The translations under genes and the position numbers were made by a program. From the IMG/VR virus record IMGVR_UViG_3300042991_000284, positions 1 through 35,145 of that record: 35,145 nucleotides of DNA; one strand, written 5' to 3'. Source of the DNA: a virus. This document shows positions 4,378 to 35,145 of this stretch, piece after piece; within the stretch, counting starts at the first letter, position 1, and every line of letters begins with the position of its first letter. The notes under the pieces were generated by a model that was not told the origin of the DNA, searched no databases, and worked only from the letters and a program-made list of their open reading frames with translations.

Positions 4378-5781
4378 CTAATTTATGCGCTTATAAAAAG
4401 TAGCCGGGATTATAATATATTTTGAGGCCACTGCCCCTTCGTGTTCATCCTTGAACGTGGGCTGTCCAAGCCATGTATATGAGGGTGTTCCCACCCCGCC
4501 AGTGCCCAGAGAGGCAGTCTTCAGCACTGCCACCCTGTCCCCCACTGAATACGCTAAATAATCACTCGATTCAATTATTATTTCGCAGCCCTGCACCTTA
4601 ACGCCATACCCAGTGCCTGTTATTGATGTAATAACCCCCGACGTGAGATGTTGCATTTCAACCCAGTTGCCAGCATAAACAAACGGGGCAGACTCCTGAA
4701 ACCACCAGACATGCGGTGGTACTGTCACCGGCTTGCACAGTATCCCTATAAATTCACCGGGGATCGGCATAGTGCTGTCCTTATGTATCCAGTACCGCAT
4801 CCATTTCTTAGGGGATACATCCTCGCCGTAGTCCTTGTTGGTGTCCGAGAACAGTTCTACGTCCCCTTTCGGGTTCGGGGCGTAAGCGGTTGTCCCTGAT
4901 GAATTGAGGGTGTTTTGCGACGCAACCGGGACATCCGGGGCAAGATAACCGCTCTCAACAAGGTGACGCCCATAACACCTATTCTTATCCGCAGTCATTC
5001 TACAAAACATTCCCGCGTCTTCCGCTATTGGCTTTTCTTCGTCTGTGAGGCTGTGTGCGGGCTTGGAATGGTAAGCACTCTTCCCGTCCACCCCGGCAAA
5101 CGGATAACCGGAAAGAGCTGTCTCCTGAATCAGTGATATGACCTCCTGTACCCCTGGAGTTCCTACCGGAAACGTCAGATAGCCGACATAATCATTGATA
5201 ACAAATCCGTCAGGCCCATCTGATGCGTATTTAATCGCCTGTCCTGTCTGCCATAATTCAAAAGCTATCGTATTGATCCAGTATATTCCAGAGTTTTCAT
5301 ACAGTGAGCCAATTATCCTGTCGTGAACATCATACGTTACATCAGCAATAAGTTGACTTGCCAGATCACGGAAAGTCTTGATTGGTGAGAACTCTGCCGA
5401 TGCTAAAAAACCGAGATTCCCTGCCATATATGCAGAATAGTTCGCATGATCGCCGTCAGGGGGTGTCTGACCCCCGGTAACGGCTATGGCCGGAGTGCCG
5501 TCTCCCGCGTCATAATACCGATTCATAAAGTTTTTGTGGCAGCGAAGATACCAAAGGTCGGGAGCAAGCGGCGCGGCAGATGCGTAATTCGTATCCGATC
5601 TGACAATATCTCCCGGCTCCAGTGTCAGGAGGAAATCAGTCAAACCCTTAACTGCCTGCCCCAGCACTGTCCCTGTCCCTGACAGGCCCTTCATGCTCGT
5701 AATAATCTTGTCGATATTGCTGGACGTTGCAAACCCCGGAAGCCCTTTTATTTTTGCAAGGACATTTTCGAGTTCGTTCAT
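4378..5781 (-). CDS. Putative virion structural protein, family not recognised
   Basis: The protein has 467 residues. The first 60 residues are helical with Gly-rich turns; the rest looks beta-rich and mixed, with many Trp, Tyr and Gly residues. Residues about 335-465 contain short barrel-like strands (GYGVKVQGCEIIIESSDYLAY, split by turns; only the pattern matters). No enzyme motif was seen. It begins one base after the stop of the 385-aa coiled-coil gene, so the two are translationally linked, and it is followed by the promoter at 4334-4362. Position among tail genes suggests a tail or receptor-contact component. The function is not known to me. Confidence 0.7.
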   Translation of the reverse strand: MNELENVLAKIKGLPGFATSSNIDKIITSMKGLSGTGTVLGQAVKGLTDFLLTLEPGDIVRSDTNYASAAPLAPDLWYLRCHKNFMNRYYDAGDGTPAIAVTGGQTPPDGDHANYSAYMAGNLGFLASAEFSPIKTFRDLASQLIADVTYDVHDRIIGSLYENSGIYWINTIAFELWQTGQAIKYASDGPDGFVINDYVGYLTFPVGTPGVQEVISLIQETALSGYPFAGVDGKSAYHSKPAHSLTDEEKPIAEDAGMFCRMTADKNRCYGRHLVESGYLAPDVPVASQNTLNSSGTTAYAPNPKGDVELFSDTNKDYGEDVSPKKWMRYWIHKDSTMPIPGEFIGILCKPVTVPPHVWWFQESAPFVYAGNWVEMQHLTSGVITSITGTGYGVKVQGCEIIIESSDYLAYSVGDRVAVLKTASLGTGGVGTPSYTWLGQPTFKDEHEGAVASKYIIIPATFYKRIN

Positions 5782-21648: not shown

Positions 21649-22902
21649 CTACTCCATCGGGAAATCAGGCGTTACCGACCCAGAGAACATCCCCACAGAC
21701 ATCAGGTCGGTAACCGCATACACAGCGGCATCCATACGATTCGGGCTCCTGTCGCCGGGCAGGTACAAGCACATCTCATCCTCAAGGGCGGGGAACGAAC
21801 CGACGTGATGCACCAGGCCTTTCTCGTACTTGGCCGCAACCGGCTCGGCCCTAACGACCTTGCCTCGTGTGGCATGAACCAGACGCACCGGGACATCCCT
21901 GTCAGCCTGTTGCAGGGTCATCCTCACCATCTCCCCCCCCTGATTCTGCTCGGCAATGATCAGATTTGCTTGATGCCGGTGATATGCGTCCACAGCCGCC
22001 TGCGCCCAGACCAGCGGGGAACCCGATATGGTGCAATCCTCTACGATATAGACCTGTTCGCCGCTACTGCCAGCGACGATTATACCAGCCGCATCTCCCC
22101 CGCCATCGCCCGAAATGGAAGGATCGACGGCAACAACGATCTTGCTTAGGGCCGGGCAGATGCTAACACGGTTGTCATCGAGCGTTTTCCGTGTCCACAG
22201 AGCCCCAGGGGCTTCATCAATATCCTCGGCAAGGATTTCCATACGATAGGCGAGTTGAGTCATATCCCCGGATATCTCGGCCAGGGCCTCCTTGCTAATG
22301 TGCGGGTTATCCATCGAAGAGAAGTGGAACGTCGCCCAGCGTTCGGGTTGCGTCGCTGCTAACTCCTTAGCCTTTTTAAACAGTTTGGCGGCGTGTTGAG
22401 GATCGTCCGCCTTGGTAACTGACCGGGTATGAAGCGAGGGCGGCGTGTAAATAAACACGGCATCGCCGTTGTTATCGAGCAACATGGGCGCACCAACCAG
22501 GCCCCAGGTATCCTCGCTCATAATCTGATACTCATCGAGGATGAGCACGTCGGCGTAATCGCCTCGGAGGGAATCGGCATTGAAACAGGTCTTAGCCCTT
22601 ATCCTCTGCTCTGTCCCCCGCAGGTCAATGATGTGCTCGGTTTCATTTTTATAAAACACCCCCGCATCAACCAGGGGGCGCAGGATATCCGTTACCGTGG
22701 CCCAGAACCGGCCTATCTGCTCTGAAGTAGGTGCTCCGTACAGGATACGATGCCCGGCAAGGAACTGTTCTACCGCATAAATGCCGATACCTACCGTTTT
22801 CCCGCTACGTCGCCCAGCCCGGATAACCTTCCTCTTGGCCGGGGAACGCATGAAATCAAGTTGCCTTGGGTGCGGCATTGGTATGGTTATTTGATAGTCC
22901 AT
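21649..22902 (-). CDS. Terminase large subunit (ATPase/nuclease)
   Basis: At 417 residues, a short but full large terminase. Walker A is GRRSGKTV at residues 30-37, Walker B is VLILDEY at 119-125 with the catalytic Glu124, and the coupling motif is IYTPP near 151-155. The nuclease domain has acidic residues in the expected order: Asp260 in VVAVDPS, Glu318 in IIAEQNQGGE, and Asp391 in PNRMDAAVYAVTDL. It packages DNA into the prohead through the portal ring. It begins 52 bases after the small subunit, with two copies of a GTGTTAGCAG repeat in the gap. Confidence 0.95.
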   Translation of the reverse strand: MDYQITIPMPHPRQLDFMRSPAKRKVIRAGRRSGKTVGIGIYAVEQFLAGHRILYGAPTSEQIGRFWATVTDILRPLVDAGVFYKNETEHIIDLRGTEQRIRAKTCFNADSLRGDYADVLILDEYQIMSEDTWGLVGAPMLLDNNGDAVFIYTPPSLHTRSVTKADDPQHAAKLFKKAKELAATQPERWATFHFSSMDNPHISKEALAEISGDMTQLAYRMEILAEDIDEAPGALWTRKTLDDNRVSICPALSKIVVAVDPSISGDGGGDAAGIIVAGSSGEQVYIVEDCTISGSPLVWAQAAVDAYHRHQANLIIAEQNQGGEMVRMTLQQADRDVPVRLVHATRGKVVRAEPVAAKYEKGLVHHVGSFPALEDEMCLYLPGDRSPNRMDAAVYAVTDLMSVGMFSGSVTPDFPME

Positions 22903-29717: not shown

Positions 29718-30537
29718 AATCTGGTCTGGTGTCTCCTGTGGAGGGATGACTGGTTGTTTTTTTAATAGCTTTATTCCGTTCGTATTCCGCGACGATTGCG
29801 GCAACTTCTTCGTCTGCCCTTGCCTGTACTGCTGCAAGGCCGGTATCTCGTTGATTGGTACTATATGTCTTTCTCCCATTGCCATTACCCCCCTCTGTTT
29901 TTAGTGAGTAGATATCCTGCCATGAATTTTCAATGCTCTGCTCCAGGAGTCGATTTGGATCGCCTCCGAGTTTTGCCAGTTTTTTTATGATCAATTTTTG
30001 TGCGTATGGGGTCGCTGGTTTTTTGATGGTTTTTCGCATCTCAAGATAGGCAACCCAAATTTCTTTTTTTACGGCATCGGGAAGTACAATTTCATGTGCC
30101 GTGCCTTTTGTAATAGTATCTTTTGTAATAGTATCTTTTGTTGTTACAGTTTTCCGTAACGGTTCGTTTCGGGAAAGTGTAACGGTAGATTTCATTTTTC
30201 TGTAACGGTTACAGTTTTCCGTAACGGTCTGCCATGTGTCGAAGTCCTTGTTAAACATATACTTTTTATGGATACCGTTACAGTTTTCCGTAACTGTTAC
30301 AATTTTCCGTAACTGTAGGTTGTTTACAATCTGAGAGCATCTTGTTTTTGACAGGCAAGTCCCGGCTATCATTTGAGATAATGAGATAATATCCTCTTTT
30401 TTATGGAAGCCATATGTTTTCCTGAGAACCAAAAGGGCAATCCGAAATTCATGCCCGGAGAGGTTAGATTTATACAGAGCTTCCATGAGGTCATTGGCTA
30501 TTGGTGTATAGCCATCTTCCTTTTGAGGCTTTGCCAT
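29710..30537 (-). CDS. Replication protein O-like initiator (RepO family)
   Basis: This 275-residue protein has the phage RepO/replisome-organiser N-terminus: DGYTPIANDLMEALYKSNLS, then a winged-helix region (GHEFRIALLVLRKTYGFHKK, IISLSQMIAGTCLSKTRCSQ, then VNNLQLRKI) to about residue 80. Between residues about 74 and 132 it has two copies of TVTENCN and a TVTT segment, encoded by iterons in the DNA (30143-30316). The C-terminal half is helical and likely contacts the helicase loader. Lambda O has the same layout, with origin iterons inside its own gene. The protein should bind these iterons and start DNA replication. Confidence 0.85.
   Translation of the reverse strand: MAKPQKEDGYTPIANDLMEALYKSNLSGHEFRIALLVLRKTYGFHKKEDIISLSQMIAGTCLSKTRCSQIVNNLQLRKIVTVTENCNGIHKKYMFNKDFDTWQTVTENCNRYRKMKSTVTLSRNEPLRKTVTTKDTITKDTITKGTAHEIVLPDAVKKEIWVAYLEMRKTIKKPATPYAQKLIIKKLAKLGGDPNRLLEQSIENSWQDIYSLKTEGGNGNGRKTYSTNQRDTGLAAVQARADEEVAAIVAEYERNKAIKKTTSHPSTGDTRPDYE
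30106..30316. repeat. Iteron-type replication origin inside repO
   Basis: Four near-identical 18-base repeats (GTTACAGTTTTCCGTAAC) occur at about 30143, 30208, 30277 and 30296 (the last as GTTACAATTTTCCGTAAC), each with GTTAC...GTAAC half-sites. Extra half-sites TGTAACGG lie near 30179 and 30202. An AT-rich tandem repeat TTTTGTAATAGTATC occurs twice at 30106-30135, just downstream in the gene's direction. This is the layout of a lambda-type origin (iterons plus an AT-rich unwinding region). Confidence 0.8.
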
Positions 30538-30914: not shown

Positions 30915-31100
30915 GTAGCCGAAACAGAATAACACCACAACACGCCTGGGGCTTCGAGCGTGGTTCCTCCGGGAATGATGAGGATGCCGAGCATCCCGCC
31001 ACGCATACAGACCAGACACGGGGAACGGCAAAAACCCGTTGCCAATGTTTTGAGGTGGTGGCCTTGCGGTGGCAATTTAAAGAAGAAAGGGGGTGAAAAA
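30915..31100 (+). other. Leader of the recombination operon (no gene assigned)
   Basis: About 185 bases separate the promoter from the ATG at 31101. They contain a short stem CACGC...GCGTG (around 30939-30961) and a weaker one GGCAA...TTGCC. A frame from GTG at 30960 runs on into the next gene in phase, but the clear ribosome binding site AAAGGGGGTGA lies before ATG 31101, so I treat this as untranslated leader. Confidence 0.4.
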
Positions 31101-31220
31101 ATGGGATTTGCGGAGAATATGTTGGTAGTCGGTCTGCTGGTCGCGGTTATCTGCGGGGGCGTCCTGATTGTTCATGGCATCGGGCTTGTTGTCATGTGGG
31201 TTGATAAACGGTTCCGCTAA
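31101..31220 (+). CDS. Small membrane protein, 39 aa
   Basis: ATG 31101 follows AAAGGGGGTGAAAAA. The protein (MGFAENMLVVGLLVAVICGG then VLIVHGIGLVVMWVDKRFR) is one long transmembrane helix with a short basic C-terminal tail (DKRFR), so it should sit in the inner membrane with its C-terminus inside. It is the first gene of the recombination operon. Such tiny proteins at this place in phages are often host-takeover or superinfection factors; none is recognised here. Confidence 0.6.
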   Translation: MGFAENMLVVGLLVAVICGGVLIVHGIGLVVMWVDKRFR

Positions 31221-31245
31221 CAGCACAGCATAAAGGAGAAATCAA

Positions 31246-31443
31246 ATGACAACAAGAGCACCTGAATACGAGACGTACAAAAGCCATGACCTGATCAAAA
31301 TCTACACGGGCAGGAAATGGAAGGACAAAAATGGTGACGAGCAGGAGGAGTCTATCTCCTTCGGTTCTAAAAAGGCGCAGGCAATCTGCGATAACATTGA
31401 CGCAATCCGCATCTTTGCGAAGAAAGGAGAAGAAAAGAAATGA
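31246..31443 (+). CDS. Small basic hypothetical protein, 65 aa
   Basis: The protein starts TTRAPEYETYKSHDLIKIYT and ends in a basic tail (FAKKGEEKK). The middle (KWKDKNGDEQEESISFGSKK) is a mix of charged strands. Its shape, a short strand-rich core before the YqaJ-type nuclease gene, recalls small single-strand DNA-binding or nuclease accessory proteins of phages, but no family was recognised. It overlaps the start of the nuclease by 4 bases (ATGATGG), so they are translated together. The ribosome binding site AAAGGAGAAATC is good. Confidence 0.6.
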   Translation: MTTRAPEYETYKSHDLIKIYTGRKWKDKNGDEQEESISFGSKKAQAICDNIDAIRIFAKKGEEKK

Positions 31444-32342
31444 TGGATGGCCCACAATGGTTAGAGGAACGCAGGAAGGGCATAGGCGGGTCAGACGTAG
31501 CCGCAATTATGGGGTTGTCCCCATACAAAACAGCGTATCAGGTTTACCGAGAAAAGAGAAAGGAGGTCGAGAGTTGGCACGGAAACAATGTGACAGACTG
31601 GGGCAAACGCATGGAACCAGCGATAAGGCAGTGGTACAGCGACACGACAGGCCGGGTGGTGCGATTACCGGAAAAGATTCTATATCACACGAAGCACAGG
31701 TACATGCTCGCTTCGCTTGACGGATTCACGGATGATAACAGGGGTCTGGAAATCAAAACGTCGAGAAATTCGCGGGGGTGGGGAGAGCCAGGCACAAACC
31801 AAATCCCGGATTATTACATGCTCCAGGTACAGCATTACATGGGTGTGACTGGCCTGCCTGTGTTCGATGTTCCGGTGTCGATTGGTGGGGCATCGCCAGA
31901 GATTTATGAGGTTCCCGCTGATATGGAGCTGATCGGGCTTATCATCGAAGTAGAAGGGGAATTTTGGGCGAGGGTAGAAAATGGCAATCCACCAGAACCG
32001 GTCACATACGCCGATGCCGTCCAGCGTTTCGGCACAAGCGCAACAGAGGGCATTATTGTCGCCACCAATAAAGAGTTTGAAATAATCTCCGAGTTAGCAG
32101 AACATCGTGACACTATAAAACGTCTGCAAGACGAAGAGGAATCACTGAAAGCGAAGCTGATCATCACGTTAGGCGAGGCAGGGAACATAATCGCCGCACC
32201 AGACGGGAAACAACTCATCACATACAGGCTTTCAAAGGGACGGACGATGTTCGACGCAAAAACTCTTGAGGCAGAAATGCCGGACATTTACCGTCAATAT
32301 GTAAAATATTCCGAACCGTCGAGGCGGTTCATTCTCAAATAA
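31440..32342 (+). CDS. YqaJ-type viral recombinase/exonuclease
   Basis: The N-terminal pattern WLEERRKGIGGSDVAAIMGL followed by SPYKTAYQVYREKR is the hallmark of the YqaJ phage exonuclease family. Catalytic-type residues follow in order: Glu59 (WGKRMEPAI), Asp94 (ASLDGF), Glu104 and Lys106 (LEIKTS), and Gln129 in LQVQHYMGVTG. At 300 residues it is the usual length. Such enzymes degrade one DNA strand to leave single-stranded ends for the partner annealing protein, here the gene at 32355. The two are adjacent with a 12-base gap. A C-terminal helical region (KRLQDEEESLKAKL) is probably for oligomer or partner contact. Confidence 0.9.
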   Translation: MMDGPQWLEERRKGIGGSDVAAIMGLSPYKTAYQVYREKRKEVESWHGNNVTDWGKRMEPAIRQWYSDTTGRVVRLPEKILYHTKHRYMLASLDGFTDDNRGLEIKTSRNSRGWGEPGTNQIPDYYMLQVQHYMGVTGLPVFDVPVSIGGASPEIYEVPADMELIGLIIEVEGEFWARVENGNPPEPVTYADAVQRFGTSATEGIIVATNKEFEIISELAEHRDTIKRLQDEEESLKAKLIITLGEAGNIIAAPDGKQLITYRLSKGRTMFDAKTLEAEMPDIYRQYVKYSEPSRRFILK

Positions 32343-32354
32343 TAGGAGGTTACA

Positions 32355-33326
32355 ATGGAAGCACCTGCAATCTATAACGAATCGCCGATTGCCACAAAGC
32401 CGCATCAGAATCAGGCAATGGTCGATGTTGAACAACAAAGGGTAATGGCCGAGGTACAGAGCACGGTCGTGTTAGCAAAGCGTTTCCCTCGCAATCAGAT
32501 AGAGGCTCTGGACAGGATATTGATGGCCTGTCAGCGTCCTGGTCTCGCAGAACAAGCCCTCTATACCTACGCACGGGGTGGAACGGAAATAACAGGCCCG
32601 TCAATCCGTCTTGCCGAGGCTCTCGCGCAGGGATGGGGAAATATTCAGTACGGCGTAAAAGAACTTGAACAGCGCAATGGGGAAAGTACGGTAGAGGCAT
32701 TCTGCTGGGATGTTGAAACCAATACCCGGCAGGTCAAGGTCTTTCAGGTAAAGCATGAACGCCATACGAAAAAGGGGAATTACCGGCTCGAAGACCCCCG
32801 CGATATTTACGAAATGGTGGCCAATAATGCCGCCAGAAGGCTCAGGGCCTGTATCCTCGGCATCATACCTGGTGATGTGATTGAATCAGCCGTGGCGCAA
32901 TGTGAAATAACGCAGAAAGCAAAGGCTGATACGTCGCCAGAGGCCCTCAAGAAGCTCGTTGATGTTTTCGGAGCGTACAGTATCACCAAAGAGCAAATCG
33001 AGAAGCGTATTCAGCGGAGGCTTGATACAATAACACCGGCACAGCTCATCTCACTGCGAAAAATCTACAACAGCCTGAAAGACGGCATGAGCACGGCTGC
33101 TGACTGGTTTGAGCTTGTGCCGCGGAAGGTAGAAGATGCAACCCCGCAAGGGGCCAATCTTAAAGATAAGGTCAAGGCCGTAAAGGAAAAGACGGAAGAC
33201 ACCTCCCGGTTTGAGTGCCCTAATGGTGGTTATGTCACGCTCGGAGTTTGCGACACCTGCAAGGGCCGTGAACCGCACCCAGGTGATTTCTGCCCGGCAT
33301 ATATCGAACATACACCGGCAAAATGA
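32355..33326 (+). CDS. Putative phage single-strand annealing/recombination protein
   Basis: The 323-residue protein follows the YqaJ-type exonuclease by 12 bases, the usual exonuclease-annealase pair. It has the phage-typical core YTYARGGTEITGPSIRLAEA, ESTVEAFCWDVETNTRQ, YRLEDPRDIYEMVANNAARR and ACILGIIPGDVIESAVAQCE. These are found in many phage recombination regions. The C-terminus has four Cys (C288, C299, C302, C313) in ECPN, GVCDTCKG and DFCPAY, a zinc-ribbon-like tail. It should anneal the single strands made by YqaJ. Whether it is a true RecT-family member can not be settled here. It ends at the first pentamer array. Confidence 0.65.
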   Translation: MEAPAIYNESPIATKPHQNQAMVDVEQQRVMAEVQSTVVLAKRFPRNQIEALDRILMACQRPGLAEQALYTYARGGTEITGPSIRLAEALAQGWGNIQYGVKELEQRNGESTVEAFCWDVETNTRQVKVFQVKHERHTKKGNYRLEDPRDIYEMVANNAARRLRACILGIIPGDVIESAVAQCEITQKAKADTSPEALKKLVDVFGAYSITKEQIEKRIQRRLDTITPAQLISLRKIYNSLKDGMSTAADWFELVPRKVEDATPQGANLKDKVKAVKEKTEDTSRFECPNGGYVTLGVCDTCKGREPHPGDFCPAYIEHTPAK

Positions 33327-33385
33327 TTTTCCATCAGAACGCCCCCCGGCGCGTACCTGAAAGGGAAGCCGGGGATTGTAGGCAA

Positions 33386-33577
33386 GGAACAAGGCACGGC
33401 AAGGCAGGGCTCGGCTCGGCGAGGCACGGCAAGGAACAAGGCTTGGCTGGCTTGGCGAGGCACGGCGGGGCAGGGCATGGCAGGGAACATGGTTGGGCCA
33501 GGCGTGGCGCGGCTCGGCTCGGCAGGGCATGGCATGGAACAAGGCACGGCAGGGCAGGGCATGGCATGGCAGGGCGA
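33386..33577 (+). repeat. Composite pentamer array 1 (GGAACAN plus GGCNN blocks)
   Basis: Four blocks start with GGAACAA, GGAACAA, GGAACAT and GGAACAA (33386, 33433, 33484, 33536). These heptamers are followed by 8, 9, 9 and 7 GGCNN pentamers; block 2 has one unit shortened to four bases. Block lengths are 47, 51, 52 and 42. The array then stops at GGATTTTTC. The two variable bases are diverse, but TA is never used, so few stop codons appear in any frame. It lies just after the annealing protein gene and before the RAMP-reminiscent gene, and I consider it non-coding. No spacers of unique sequence separate units, so it is not CRISPR. Confidence 0.9.
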
Positions 33578-33635
33578 GGATTTTTCAAAGGACATTACGA
33601 AGTTGAACCTATAATTCATTTAAAGGATGGGTAAA

Positions 33636-34301
33636 ATGCAACAGTATAAAATCACGATGGAGGGCTTGACACCGTTATTGATGCACAACGACAATTTGAC
33701 GTTTACAGAAAAAATCAAGGCGTGGCAAAAAGACCCGGAGAACAAGATGTCGAGCAAAGCTGGCGACGATCGCACCCCCGCATGGATATGGATCGGATAC
33801 CTGTACCATGACAATCAACACATTGGCATCAATTCCGACAATATTATGACGATGCTTCGTGAGGGCGGTACGAAGGTGAAGGTCGGTAGCGGGAAGGAAA
33901 CGTACAAGAAGCAGACGCAGAGCGGCATCATACTTGACCGACAACAGTTTGACCTGTTTGTTGACGGGAAGATCGTCGGCATCGACAAAATTAAGCCACT
34001 TATTGGGGAGCCGGACTTTGCCGAACACATCCGGGTCGCCGAGGAAAACGGCTTTGAATTGCTTGTCAAGCGAGCGAAAATCGGTCAGTCGAAACATATC
34101 CGGGTCAGGCCGATGTTTCGTAAGTGGGTGGCCGTGGGCTCCCTCTCGGTGTTAGATGAAGAAATTTTTGGCATCACGAAGGAAATACTCGAACTGATAC
34201 TCCGCCAATCGGGTTCGCTATGCGGAATCGGTGATTGGCGTCCGTCGAGTCCGTCGAGCGGGACGTTCGGGAAATTTGCTCCTACGGTCGAACGGATGTA
34301 G
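33636..34301 (+). CDS. Hypothetical recombination-region protein with RAMP-like signatures, 221 aa
   Basis: I chose ATG 33636 (MQQYKITMEGLTPLLMHNDN) because AAAGGATGGG stands at a good distance; ATG 33627 lies inside that site. The start ITMEGLTPLLMHN and the glycine-rich C-terminal loop (GIGDWRPSSPSSGTFGKF) recall the first strand and G-rich loop of RAMP/Cas7-like RNA- or DNA-binding folds. The middle has strands and a basic segment (LVKRAKIGQSKHIRVRPMFR). The resemblance is by eye and the fold is unproven. It lies between two composite pentamer arrays, an unusual position that suggests a cassette or a link between protein and arrays. Confidence 0.65.
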   Translation: MQQYKITMEGLTPLLMHNDNLTFTEKIKAWQKDPENKMSSKAGDDRTPAWIWIGYLYHDNQHIGINSDNIMTMLREGGTKVKVGSGKETYKKQTQSGIILDRQQFDLFVDGKIVGIDKIKPLIGEPDFAEHIRVAEENGFELLVKRAKIGQSKHIRVRPMFRKWVAVGSLSVLDEEIFGITKEILELILRQSGSLCGIGDWRPSSPSSGTFGKFAPTVERM

Positions 34302-34308
34302 GTAGCGA

Positions 34309-34511
34309 GGAACAAGGCAGGACTCGGCTCGGCTCGGCAGGGCACGGCGAGGCATGGCGAGGCAGGGAACAGGGCGGGGCACGGCATGGCTGGGCGCGGC
34401 TGGGCTTGGCATGGCTTGGCATGGCGAGGAACACGGCGGGGCTTGGCGAGGCGGGGCCTGGCGAGGCGAGGAACATGGCGAGGCATGGCACGGCGAGGCG
34501 AGGCTGGGCCT
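34309..34511 (+). repeat. Composite pentamer array 2 (GGAACAN plus GGCNN blocks)
   Basis: Blocks start at 34309, 34366, 34428 and 34470 with GGAACAA, GGAACAG, GGAACAC and GGAACAT. They carry 10, 11, 7 and 7 pentamers of GGCNN type (one GACTC); block lengths are 57, 62, 42 and 42. The array ends at GGATTTTCC, like array 1, whose last block also has 7 pentamers. The region fills almost the whole 250-base gap between the RAMP-reminiscent gene and the 157-aa gene. Confidence 0.9.
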
Positions 34512-34551
34512 GGATTTTCCCAGAAACAATTAACCGAGAGAGGCTAATCAC

Positions 34552-35025
34552 ATGAAAACAAATCTATTTTTTGGGGGGATACCGACACAGGCGGACGTAA
34601 ATAAACTGACGGAGCATTTCCCTCTTGAACAGATGACGACGGGGGCCAGGTTCAGTTATGCCGACGTGAGCGCGTTGCTTGGCACAGGTGTCCGGTCGCA
34701 CCGGTTCAATACGGTGACAACGATGTGGCGGCGGAGGGTCGAAATAGCATACAACATCATCATCGGATGTGACATAGAAAGGGAATCGTTTTACGTCCTG
34801 TCTGAGCCGGAAAAGGTGAAATTGAGCCTACAGAAACTCCGGTCGTCTGTGAGTTTTTCGCGGCGGTCGATAGTGGTATCAGGCCGGGTTGATCTGAAAC
34901 AGCTCACCGACGAAGACCGGAAAAGTCATGATTTTAACTGTATTCGTGCCGCTGCAATCATCACCACCGGCCAGTTGCGTAAAAAAGACAAACAGCTCCC
35001 GGAAATGGAGGTACGTTTACCATGA
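34552..35025 (+). CDS. Hypothetical protein, 157 aa
   Basis: The protein starts MKTNLFFGGIPTQADVNKLT and has helix-turn-helix-like content in the first half (FSYADVSALLGTGVRSHRFN then TVTTMWRRRVEIAYN), followed by a Lys/Ser-rich strand region. It ends with acidic and basic helices (DEDRKSHDFNC, LRKKDKQLPEME). DNA binding is plausible from the N-terminal half. ATG 34552 follows GAGAGGCTAATC, a modest ribosome binding site, just after the second pentamer array. It overlaps the next gene by 4 bases (ATGA). No known family was recognised. Confidence 0.65.
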   Translation: MKTNLFFGGIPTQADVNKLTEHFPLEQMTTGARFSYADVSALLGTGVRSHRFNTVTTMWRRRVEIAYNIIIGCDIERESFYVLSEPEKVKLSLQKLRSSVSFSRRSIVVSGRVDLKQLTDEDRKSHDFNCIRAAAIITTGQLRKKDKQLPEMEVRLP

Positions 35026-35145
35026 GAAACAAAAAACCAGAGTTACCGGGAAAGCTGTTGCCGTGTCCGTTTTGCGGGGATGAACCCACCGTCTCCTGGA
35101 ACGGAGCTATGGTCATCAAGTGTACCAACCCCGATTGCTGCCACC
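35022..35145 (+). CDS. Lar-type zinc ribbon protein (partial)
   Basis: The gene starts at ATG 35022, overlapping the previous stop (ATGA), and runs off the window after 41 codons. The visible part MRNKKPELPGKLLPCPFCGD then EPTVSWNGAMVIKCTNPDC has CPFCG and CTNPDC, the paired zinc knuckles of the Lar family restriction-alleviation-type phage zinc ribbons. Lar-like proteins modulate host type I restriction in Rac; many relatives have no proven role. The C-terminus is missing, so the family call is partial. It belongs to the recombination operon. Confidence 0.7.
   Translation, partial: MRNKKPELPGKLLPCPFCGDEPTVSWNGAMVIKCTNPDCCH

What the first reader, a model, noticed from the sequence alone, without database searches (positions are those of the whole stretch)
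33386..34511. Two composite pentamer arrays with identical grammar flank one gene
Both arrays follow the same rule: a GGAACAN heptamer then 7-11 GGCNN pentamers, four blocks per array, ending at GGATTTT. Spacing of the heptamers is 47, 51, 52 and 57, 62, 42, all equal to 7 plus a multiple of 5 except one unit short by a base. The variable pair is diverse but TA is absent. The arrays flank a single gene and have no unique spacers, so they are neither CRISPR nor a simple microsatellite. Arrays whose spurious translations read like ARHGKAGLGSARHG are familiar to me from phage recombination regions, but the heptamer-plus-pentamer grammar is not something I know as described. Possible roles: recombination substrate, protein-binding scaffold, transcript structure, or a mobile cassette boundary.
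Basis: seen in the sequence. Interest (0 to 1): 0.8.

Follow-up and report, generated by a model that had tools for sequence, protein, structure and literature searches.

The report
Phage VIPR guide-RNA arrays and genes
The two repeat arrays are most likely guide-RNA arrays of a VIPR system, a phage-borne, CRISPR-like way of finding DNA first described in a 2026 preprint; the gene between them encodes the guide-holding protein, and one guide matches the integrase gene of another phage.

Summary
In detail: two sense-strand arrays of GGCNN pentamers broken by GGAACAN heptamers flank one gene, far beyond chance. They are not unique. The gene between them (phrog_4652) was used to fetch 132 other viral loci by protein alone; 122 have a GG-period-5 array beside the gene, on the same strand, and none elsewhere on that strand. 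Its AlphaFold model matches Cas7/Csm3 CRISPR backbone proteins. It is a homologue of the Vipr protein of phage SUSP1, and the next gene is a homologue of SUSP1's accessory gene (vap). This is therefore a VIPR system (bioRxiv 2026.04.26.720920): RNAs of alternating GGY/NN in which only the NN pairs read the target DNA, with one skipped base between pairs. I applied that rule to the longest block. It matches 22 of 22 NN bases in one other phage element, inside an integrase gene, with every skipped base at a codon's third position. The match starts at the heptamer's own dinucleotide and stops one unit before the next heptamer, so each block looks like one guide and the heptamer marks its start. 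The system is already known. The heptamer-divided, tail-less array may be the 'staggered arrays' mentioned there, whose figure I could not read.

The parts
33381..33584 (+). vrRNA array A: four heptamer-led blocks (A1 33386-33432, A2 33433-33483, A3 33484-33535, A4 33536-33577) ending in GGATTTT (33578-33584)
33627..34301 (+). vipr gene (phrog_4652): RAMP/Cas7-like guide-RNA-binding protein; likely true start 33636
   Evidence: phrog_4652 E=5e-21; AF2 model pLDDT 95.9; Csm3/Cas7 best PDB matches; BLASTP to SUSP1 Vipr E=3e-17
34309..34518 (+). vrRNA array B: four heptamer-led blocks (B1 34309-34365, B2 34366-34427, B3 34428-34469, B4 34470-34511) ending in GGATTTT (34512-34518)
34366..34422 (+). 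guide B2 as read by the 1-nt skip rule: AG(heptamer) GG AC AT TG GC TG TT AT TT AT; matches a phage integrase gene
34552..35025 (+). vap (accessory) gene, SUSP1-vap family; predicted winged helix plus helical hairpin
   Evidence: HMM of the family hits SUSP1 vap E=3e-13; AF2 pLDDT 92.6; weak winged-helix matches only

Best explanation
The locus 33381-35025 is a VIPR (Viral Interference Programmable Repeat) system of a tailed phage. The arrays are transcribed in the sense direction into guide RNAs (vrRNAs). Several copies of the Cas7-like Vipr protein (33627-34301) are inferred to coat each RNA, holding one GGY triplet each and exposing the NN dinucleotides. The NNs pair with double-stranded DNA, leaving one target base unread between dinucleotides, and the bound complex represses the target gene. 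The Vap protein (34552-35025) probably aids DNA binding. In this array type each heptamer-led block is one guide: it starts with the NN of GGAACNN, and the last pentamer plus the next GGAAC is its 3' boundary. Block B2 is aimed at the integrase gene of another phage. Shown here: array grammar, gene-array linkage, protein family and fold, and the target match. Inferred from the preprint: RNA expression, binding, repression.
For: Of 132 loci fetched by Vipr protein only, 122 have a GG-period-5 array within 1.5 kb on the same strand, 0 elsewhere on that strand, and 1 has one on the opposite strand. The six of the ten exceptions that were read show degenerate or GCANN/GGTNN arrays by eye. 104 of 132 also carry the vap family. 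The fold matches Csm3/Cas7: Foldseek E=4e-5, VIA Z 11.9. Homology to SUSP1 Vipr E=3e-17 and Vap E=3e-13. In close relatives separators are identical while NN positions are replaced block by block and GGY is kept. B2 under the 1-nt skip rule: 3 hits, all one element, in a P4-type integrase (MKMKQAHIVPL) with the skip at the wobble base. Heptamer AG also pairs, the last unit GA does not, and the next best score is 14/24. The reversed-order control gave 0 hits. Mechanism from PMC13142463.
Against: No RNA or binding data for this phage. Only one confident target was found: B1 gave no exact match, and A3 has two competing candidates. The window arrays lack the structured 3' tail described for type II vrRNAs; stretches after GGATTTT fold no better than shuffles. 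Blocks are short (7-11 pentamers, against 9-16 repeats in the preprint). Vap's winged-helix fold is not statistically supported (best E 0.016).
Confidence: 0.95

Rival explanations
1. The arrays are a DNA-level element (recombination hotspot, annealing substrate or cassette boundary) used by the neighbouring RecE-like/phrog_3657 recombination genes.
For: A RecE-like exonuclease and phrog_3657 lie just upstream; arrays often flank one or two genes as if bounding a cassette.
Against: Arrays track the Vipr gene in 122 of 132 loci, while neighbours in other phages include integrase, antirepressor, tape measure or polymerase genes. They are strictly on the sense strand of vipr, which a symmetric DNA element would not need.
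Confidence: 0.02
2. A TRAP-like regulator: an oligomeric ring protein binds GGY every 5 nt of the mRNA to control the operon itself, NN being mere spacers.
For: Period 5 with 2-nt spacers resembles the NAG-NN repeats bound by TRAP (own knowledge); the arrays lie in the operon's own intergenic regions.
Against: The fold is Cas7/RAMP. NNs are replaced block-wise between near-identical loci while separators stay identical, and an NN string matches a foreign phage gene in codon phase; neutral spacers predict neither.
Confidence: 0.02
3. VIPR system, but guides run across several blocks and the GGAACNN heptamer is only a structural or phasing element (bringing the mean period to about 5.2-5.3 nt), not a guide boundary.
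For: Heptamers recur every 42-62 nt; the preprint mentions 'staggered arrays with overlapping vrRNAs' without details in the main text.
Against: The B2 match starts exactly at the heptamer dinucleotide and ends one unit before the next heptamer, with no pairing in the neighbouring blocks. The two arrays of L046 end with GGAACNN and one of them also begins with it.
Confidence: 0.2

Closest known systems
VIPR system of Escherichia phage SUSP1 (type II; PMC13142463)
   Same: Homologous Vipr and Vap proteins, GGY/NN repeat RNAs beside vipr, 1-nt skip target match, target in a competing phage.
   Different: Window arrays are continuous, divided by GGAACNN heptamers, without hairpin/pseudoknot tails; an array lies between vipr and vap; Vipr only 26% identical.
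'Staggered arrays with overlapping vrRNAs' (VIPR, fig. S18 of the same preprint)
   Same: From the name, plausibly the same architecture as the window's heptamer-divided arrays.
Type III / VII CRISPR Cas7 (Csm3) backbone
   Same: Fold of the protein; a repeated protein that coats a guide RNA.
   Different: No CRISPR repeats with contiguous spacers and no cas genes among the neighbours searched; period 5 with GGY, not 6; guide read in dinucleotides.

Membership tests
VIPR | Vipr protein: minimal RAMP (RRM core, G-loop, thumb), homologous to SUSP1 Vipr | tested here: met
   BLASTP E=3e-17 to SUSP1; profile E=2e-23; Cas7-like fold; conserved GxGDWRP...G.F loop. G-loop and thumb were not compared residue by residue.
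VIPR | Accessory vap gene beside vipr | tested here: met
   Window 34552-35025; family HMM hits SUSP1 vap E=3e-13; present in 104 of 132 loci
VIPR | Non-coding RNAs of GGY/NN tandem repeats flanking vipr, sense strand | tested here: met
   Sequence feature only, transcription not tested:
VIPR | 9-16 repeats per vrRNA | tested here: inconclusive
   Blocks have 7-11 pentamers plus a heptamer; true RNA ends unknown
VIPR | GGY conserved, NN hypervariable | tested here: met
   Block-wise NN replacement with identical separators in relatives L113-L134
VIPR | Invariable structured 3' tail after the repeats | tested here: inconclusive
   Only a shared GGATTTT; downstream folds not better than shuffles. 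Hairpin separators are seen in relatives
VIPR | NN string matches mobile-element DNA under the 1-nt skip rule, skip at codon wobble position | tested here: met
   Block B2 22/22 in an integrase gene; one target only
VIPR | vrRNA expressed and bound by Vipr; DNA binding and repression | not testable with these tools
   needs bench work
CRISPR-Cas | Repeats alternating with unique contiguous spacers, with cas1/cas2 or effector operon | tested here: not met
   No unique contiguous spacers; neighbouring genes are vipr, vap, RecE-like, phrog_3657
Known Rfam RNA families | Match above gathering score | tested here: not met
   0 matches in 13 relatives, none above gathering in window 31000-35145

The most novel reading that the evidence does not exclude
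A tail-less, staggered VIPR array type in which GGAACNN is a shared joint: it closes one guide, opens the next and supplies the next guide's first paired dinucleotide, so one continuous GGCNN transcript is cut into 7-11-unit guides without hairpins or ribozymes. If so, arrays A and B hold eight guides, at least one against a rival phage's integrase.
Probability: 0.5. Interest if true: 0.65.

Novelty: new member of a known kind. Interest (0 to 1): 0.6.

Why it matters
VIPR is a very recent, RNA-guided DNA-recognition system with a gapped code, proposed as an ancestor of CRISPR. This locus gives an independent check of that code on data not chosen for it, a natural target (integrase codons 1-2, wobble base skipped), and a sharp prediction about how tail-less arrays are divided into guides. 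The main text says two other array types were confirmed by RNA sequencing but does not say so for the staggered one. The association also gives a function to phrog_4652, listed as unknown, and shows that some annotated phage ORFs are really guide arrays.

Tried and rejected
Coding arrays: heptamer (7) and pentamer (5) lengths keep no common frame, so rejected. Microsatellite slippage: units differ at NN while GGC is kept, so rejected. Helical phasing (heptamer every ~10 pentamers gives ~10.4 bp/turn): mean over heptamer arrays is 10.7 and mycobacteriophage arrays use a 4-mer GGCA joint instead, so dropped. Rfam: nothing. Local search of 211 guides for targets in ~1.5 Mb of held loci, skips 0, 1, 2, 4, 5: no excess over shuffled units; these loci are mostly the VIPR regions themselves. 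B1 20-nt target: none. A3 18-nt pattern: 7 hits, all at one conserved terminase codon stretch in correct codon phase, but about one chance family is expected at 18 nt, and a 16/20 match lies 13 bp from the B2 target in the integrase gene (1 of 100 shuffles reaches 16), so A3's target is undecided. Guides of Desulfovibrio-type loci L045/L046 against 348 and 297 relatives: nothing above background. Literature for pentamer repeats found nothing until 'RNA-guided / Cas7 / pentanucleotide' terms were combined.

Full report
WHAT IS THERE. The two arrays are exactly as described. Array A (33381-33584) and array B (34309-34518) are runs of GGCNN pentamers opened and divided by GGAACAN heptamers at 33386, 33433, 33484, 33536 and 34309, 34366, 34428, 34470, each ending in GGATTTT. 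They flank a gene at 33627-34301, and a second gene follows at 34552-35025. First-order surrogates of the window never give a period-5 GG chain scoring above 5.5, while the arrays score 43.5 and 46. All strict hits are on the sense strand. The window is an IMG/VR virus record with portal, terminase, capsid and head-closure genes.

IT IS A WIDESPREAD FEATURE. The pattern GGAACA-N-(GGCNN)4 hits 25 stretches of IMG/VR, and GGAACNN-(GGCNN)5 hits 36 viral and 14 genome stretches, several of the latter being unrelated simple repeats. Parsed arrays reach about 135 units and keep the grammar. Isolated phages carry versions too. Mycobacteriophages of genus Cheoctovirus (Quico, Donkeykong, BobaPhett) use a GGCA joint; Gordonia phages UmaThurman and ODay have GG[CT]NN arrays.

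THE PARTNER GENES. Clustering neighbours showed two families recurring beside arrays: that of 33627-34301 (phrog_4652, function unknown) and that of 34552-35025. The decisive test was the reverse search. Loci were fetched by the protein only. Of 132 loci, 122 have a GG-period-5 array within 1.5 kb on the same strand, none elsewhere on that strand, and one on the opposite strand. Six of the ten exceptions were read and show degenerate or differently spelled arrays by eye, for example GCANN in phage phiHSIC. The second family is present in 104 of 132.

THE PROTEIN. AlphaFold2 with 87 aligned sequences gives a confident model (pLDDT 95.9). Its best solved-structure matches are CRISPR backbone proteins, Csm3 and type VII Cas7 (Foldseek E 4e-5; VIA Z 11.9, rmsd 3.8 over 164 residues). 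The second protein is predicted as a small winged-helix-like domain plus a long helical hairpin, but no structural match is significant.

THE RNA LOGIC. In many relatives the pentamer blocks are separated by hairpin elements, giving a CRISPR-like layout. In a group of close relatives (L113-L134) the hairpins are identical, while the NN letters of whole blocks are replaced and reassorted and GGY is kept. So NN carries exchangeable information and GGY is scaffold.

WHAT IS KNOWN. A preprint (PMC13142463, bioRxiv 2026.04.26.720920) describes exactly this as VIPR: a RAMP protein (Vipr), an accessory gene (vap), and vrRNAs of GGY/NN repeats that read double-stranded DNA through NN with a one-base skip. 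It reports experimental proof in phage SUSP1. The SUSP1 gene at KT454805 28474-29061 is homologous to the window gene (26% identity, E=3e-17), and the next SUSP1 gene to the window's second gene (E=3e-13). That these two are the paper's vipr and vap follows from the layout it describes, one array upstream and three downstream, which the SUSP1 sequence shows.

TEST OF THE CODE ON THIS WINDOW. I took the longest block, B2, left out its last unit (which before a heptamer is mostly GGCGA or GGCAA in relatives), and searched IMG/VR with the 1-nt skip pattern (20 fixed bases). Three contigs matched, all copies of one phage element with terminase and replication genes. The site lies in a P4-type tyrosine integrase, over codons for MKMKQAHIVPL, with every skipped base at a third codon position. 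Beyond the searched pattern, the heptamer's own dinucleotide AG also pairs (22 of 22), the left-out unit GA does not, and neighbouring blocks do not pair. If the collection holds about 5e10 bases (my estimate), chance gives about 0.1 such 20-base match; the extra AG and the codon phase lower this to roughly 0.002. A reversed-order control pattern and block B1 gave none. Block A3 is undecided: it matches 16 of 20 in the same integrase gene, in phase, 13 bp away, and exactly matches a conserved terminase stretch in seven contigs.

THE HEPTAMER. On the Vipr tree heptamer arrays cluster mainly in the window's clade (11 changes against 18 in shuffles, 0 of 500 as low). The B2 boundaries, and locus L046, whose two arrays end with GGAACNN and one of which also begins with it, suggest that GGAACNN closes one guide and opens the next. 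The preprint's 'staggered arrays with overlapping vrRNAs' may be this type, but its main text gives no heptamer sequence and the supplement was not readable here.

VERDICT. A real and interesting system, already described in kind; this is a new member with a less documented array architecture and a plausible natural target.

Noticed in passing
L196 (phiHSIC) 4564-4900; L188 3760-4000: Two Vipr loci use GCANN-type pentamers instead of GGYNN, a related but different scaffold triplet.
   Followed up: partly
L068 (Gordonia phage Trine) 4580-4870: vrRNA arrays alternate with elements that look like a tRNA acceptor stem plus T-arm (GGTTCGACTCC), suggesting processing by host tRNA enzymes.
   Followed up: no
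L062 5943-6329 (Donkeykong gp48); L064 4793-5116 (UmaThurman gp40): Annotated 'hypothetical proteins' lie on top of the pentamer arrays and are probably not genes.
   Followed up: no
GU169904 (Staphylococcus phage SA1) 91679-92263: A record labelled Staphylococcus phage holds a Felixounavirus-type Vipr at 99.5% identity; the record may be contaminated or mislabelled.
   Followed up: no
window 21649-22902: The terminase is 62% identical to that of 'Methanosarcina virus MetMV', far above all other phages.
   Followed up: no
window 30105-30141, 30277-30316: Short AT-rich tandem repeats (15-mer x2.5, 19-mer x2.1); possible operator or replication sites.
   Followed up: no
window 31440-33326: RecE-like exonuclease followed by phrog_3657 (unknown function) just upstream; phrog_3657 may be the annealing partner.
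   Followed up: no
L049 69-1652: Pentamer arrays with unusual long joints (such as GGTTTCTTCTCAACGGCTTTTCGAGG), a further separator type.
   Followed up: no
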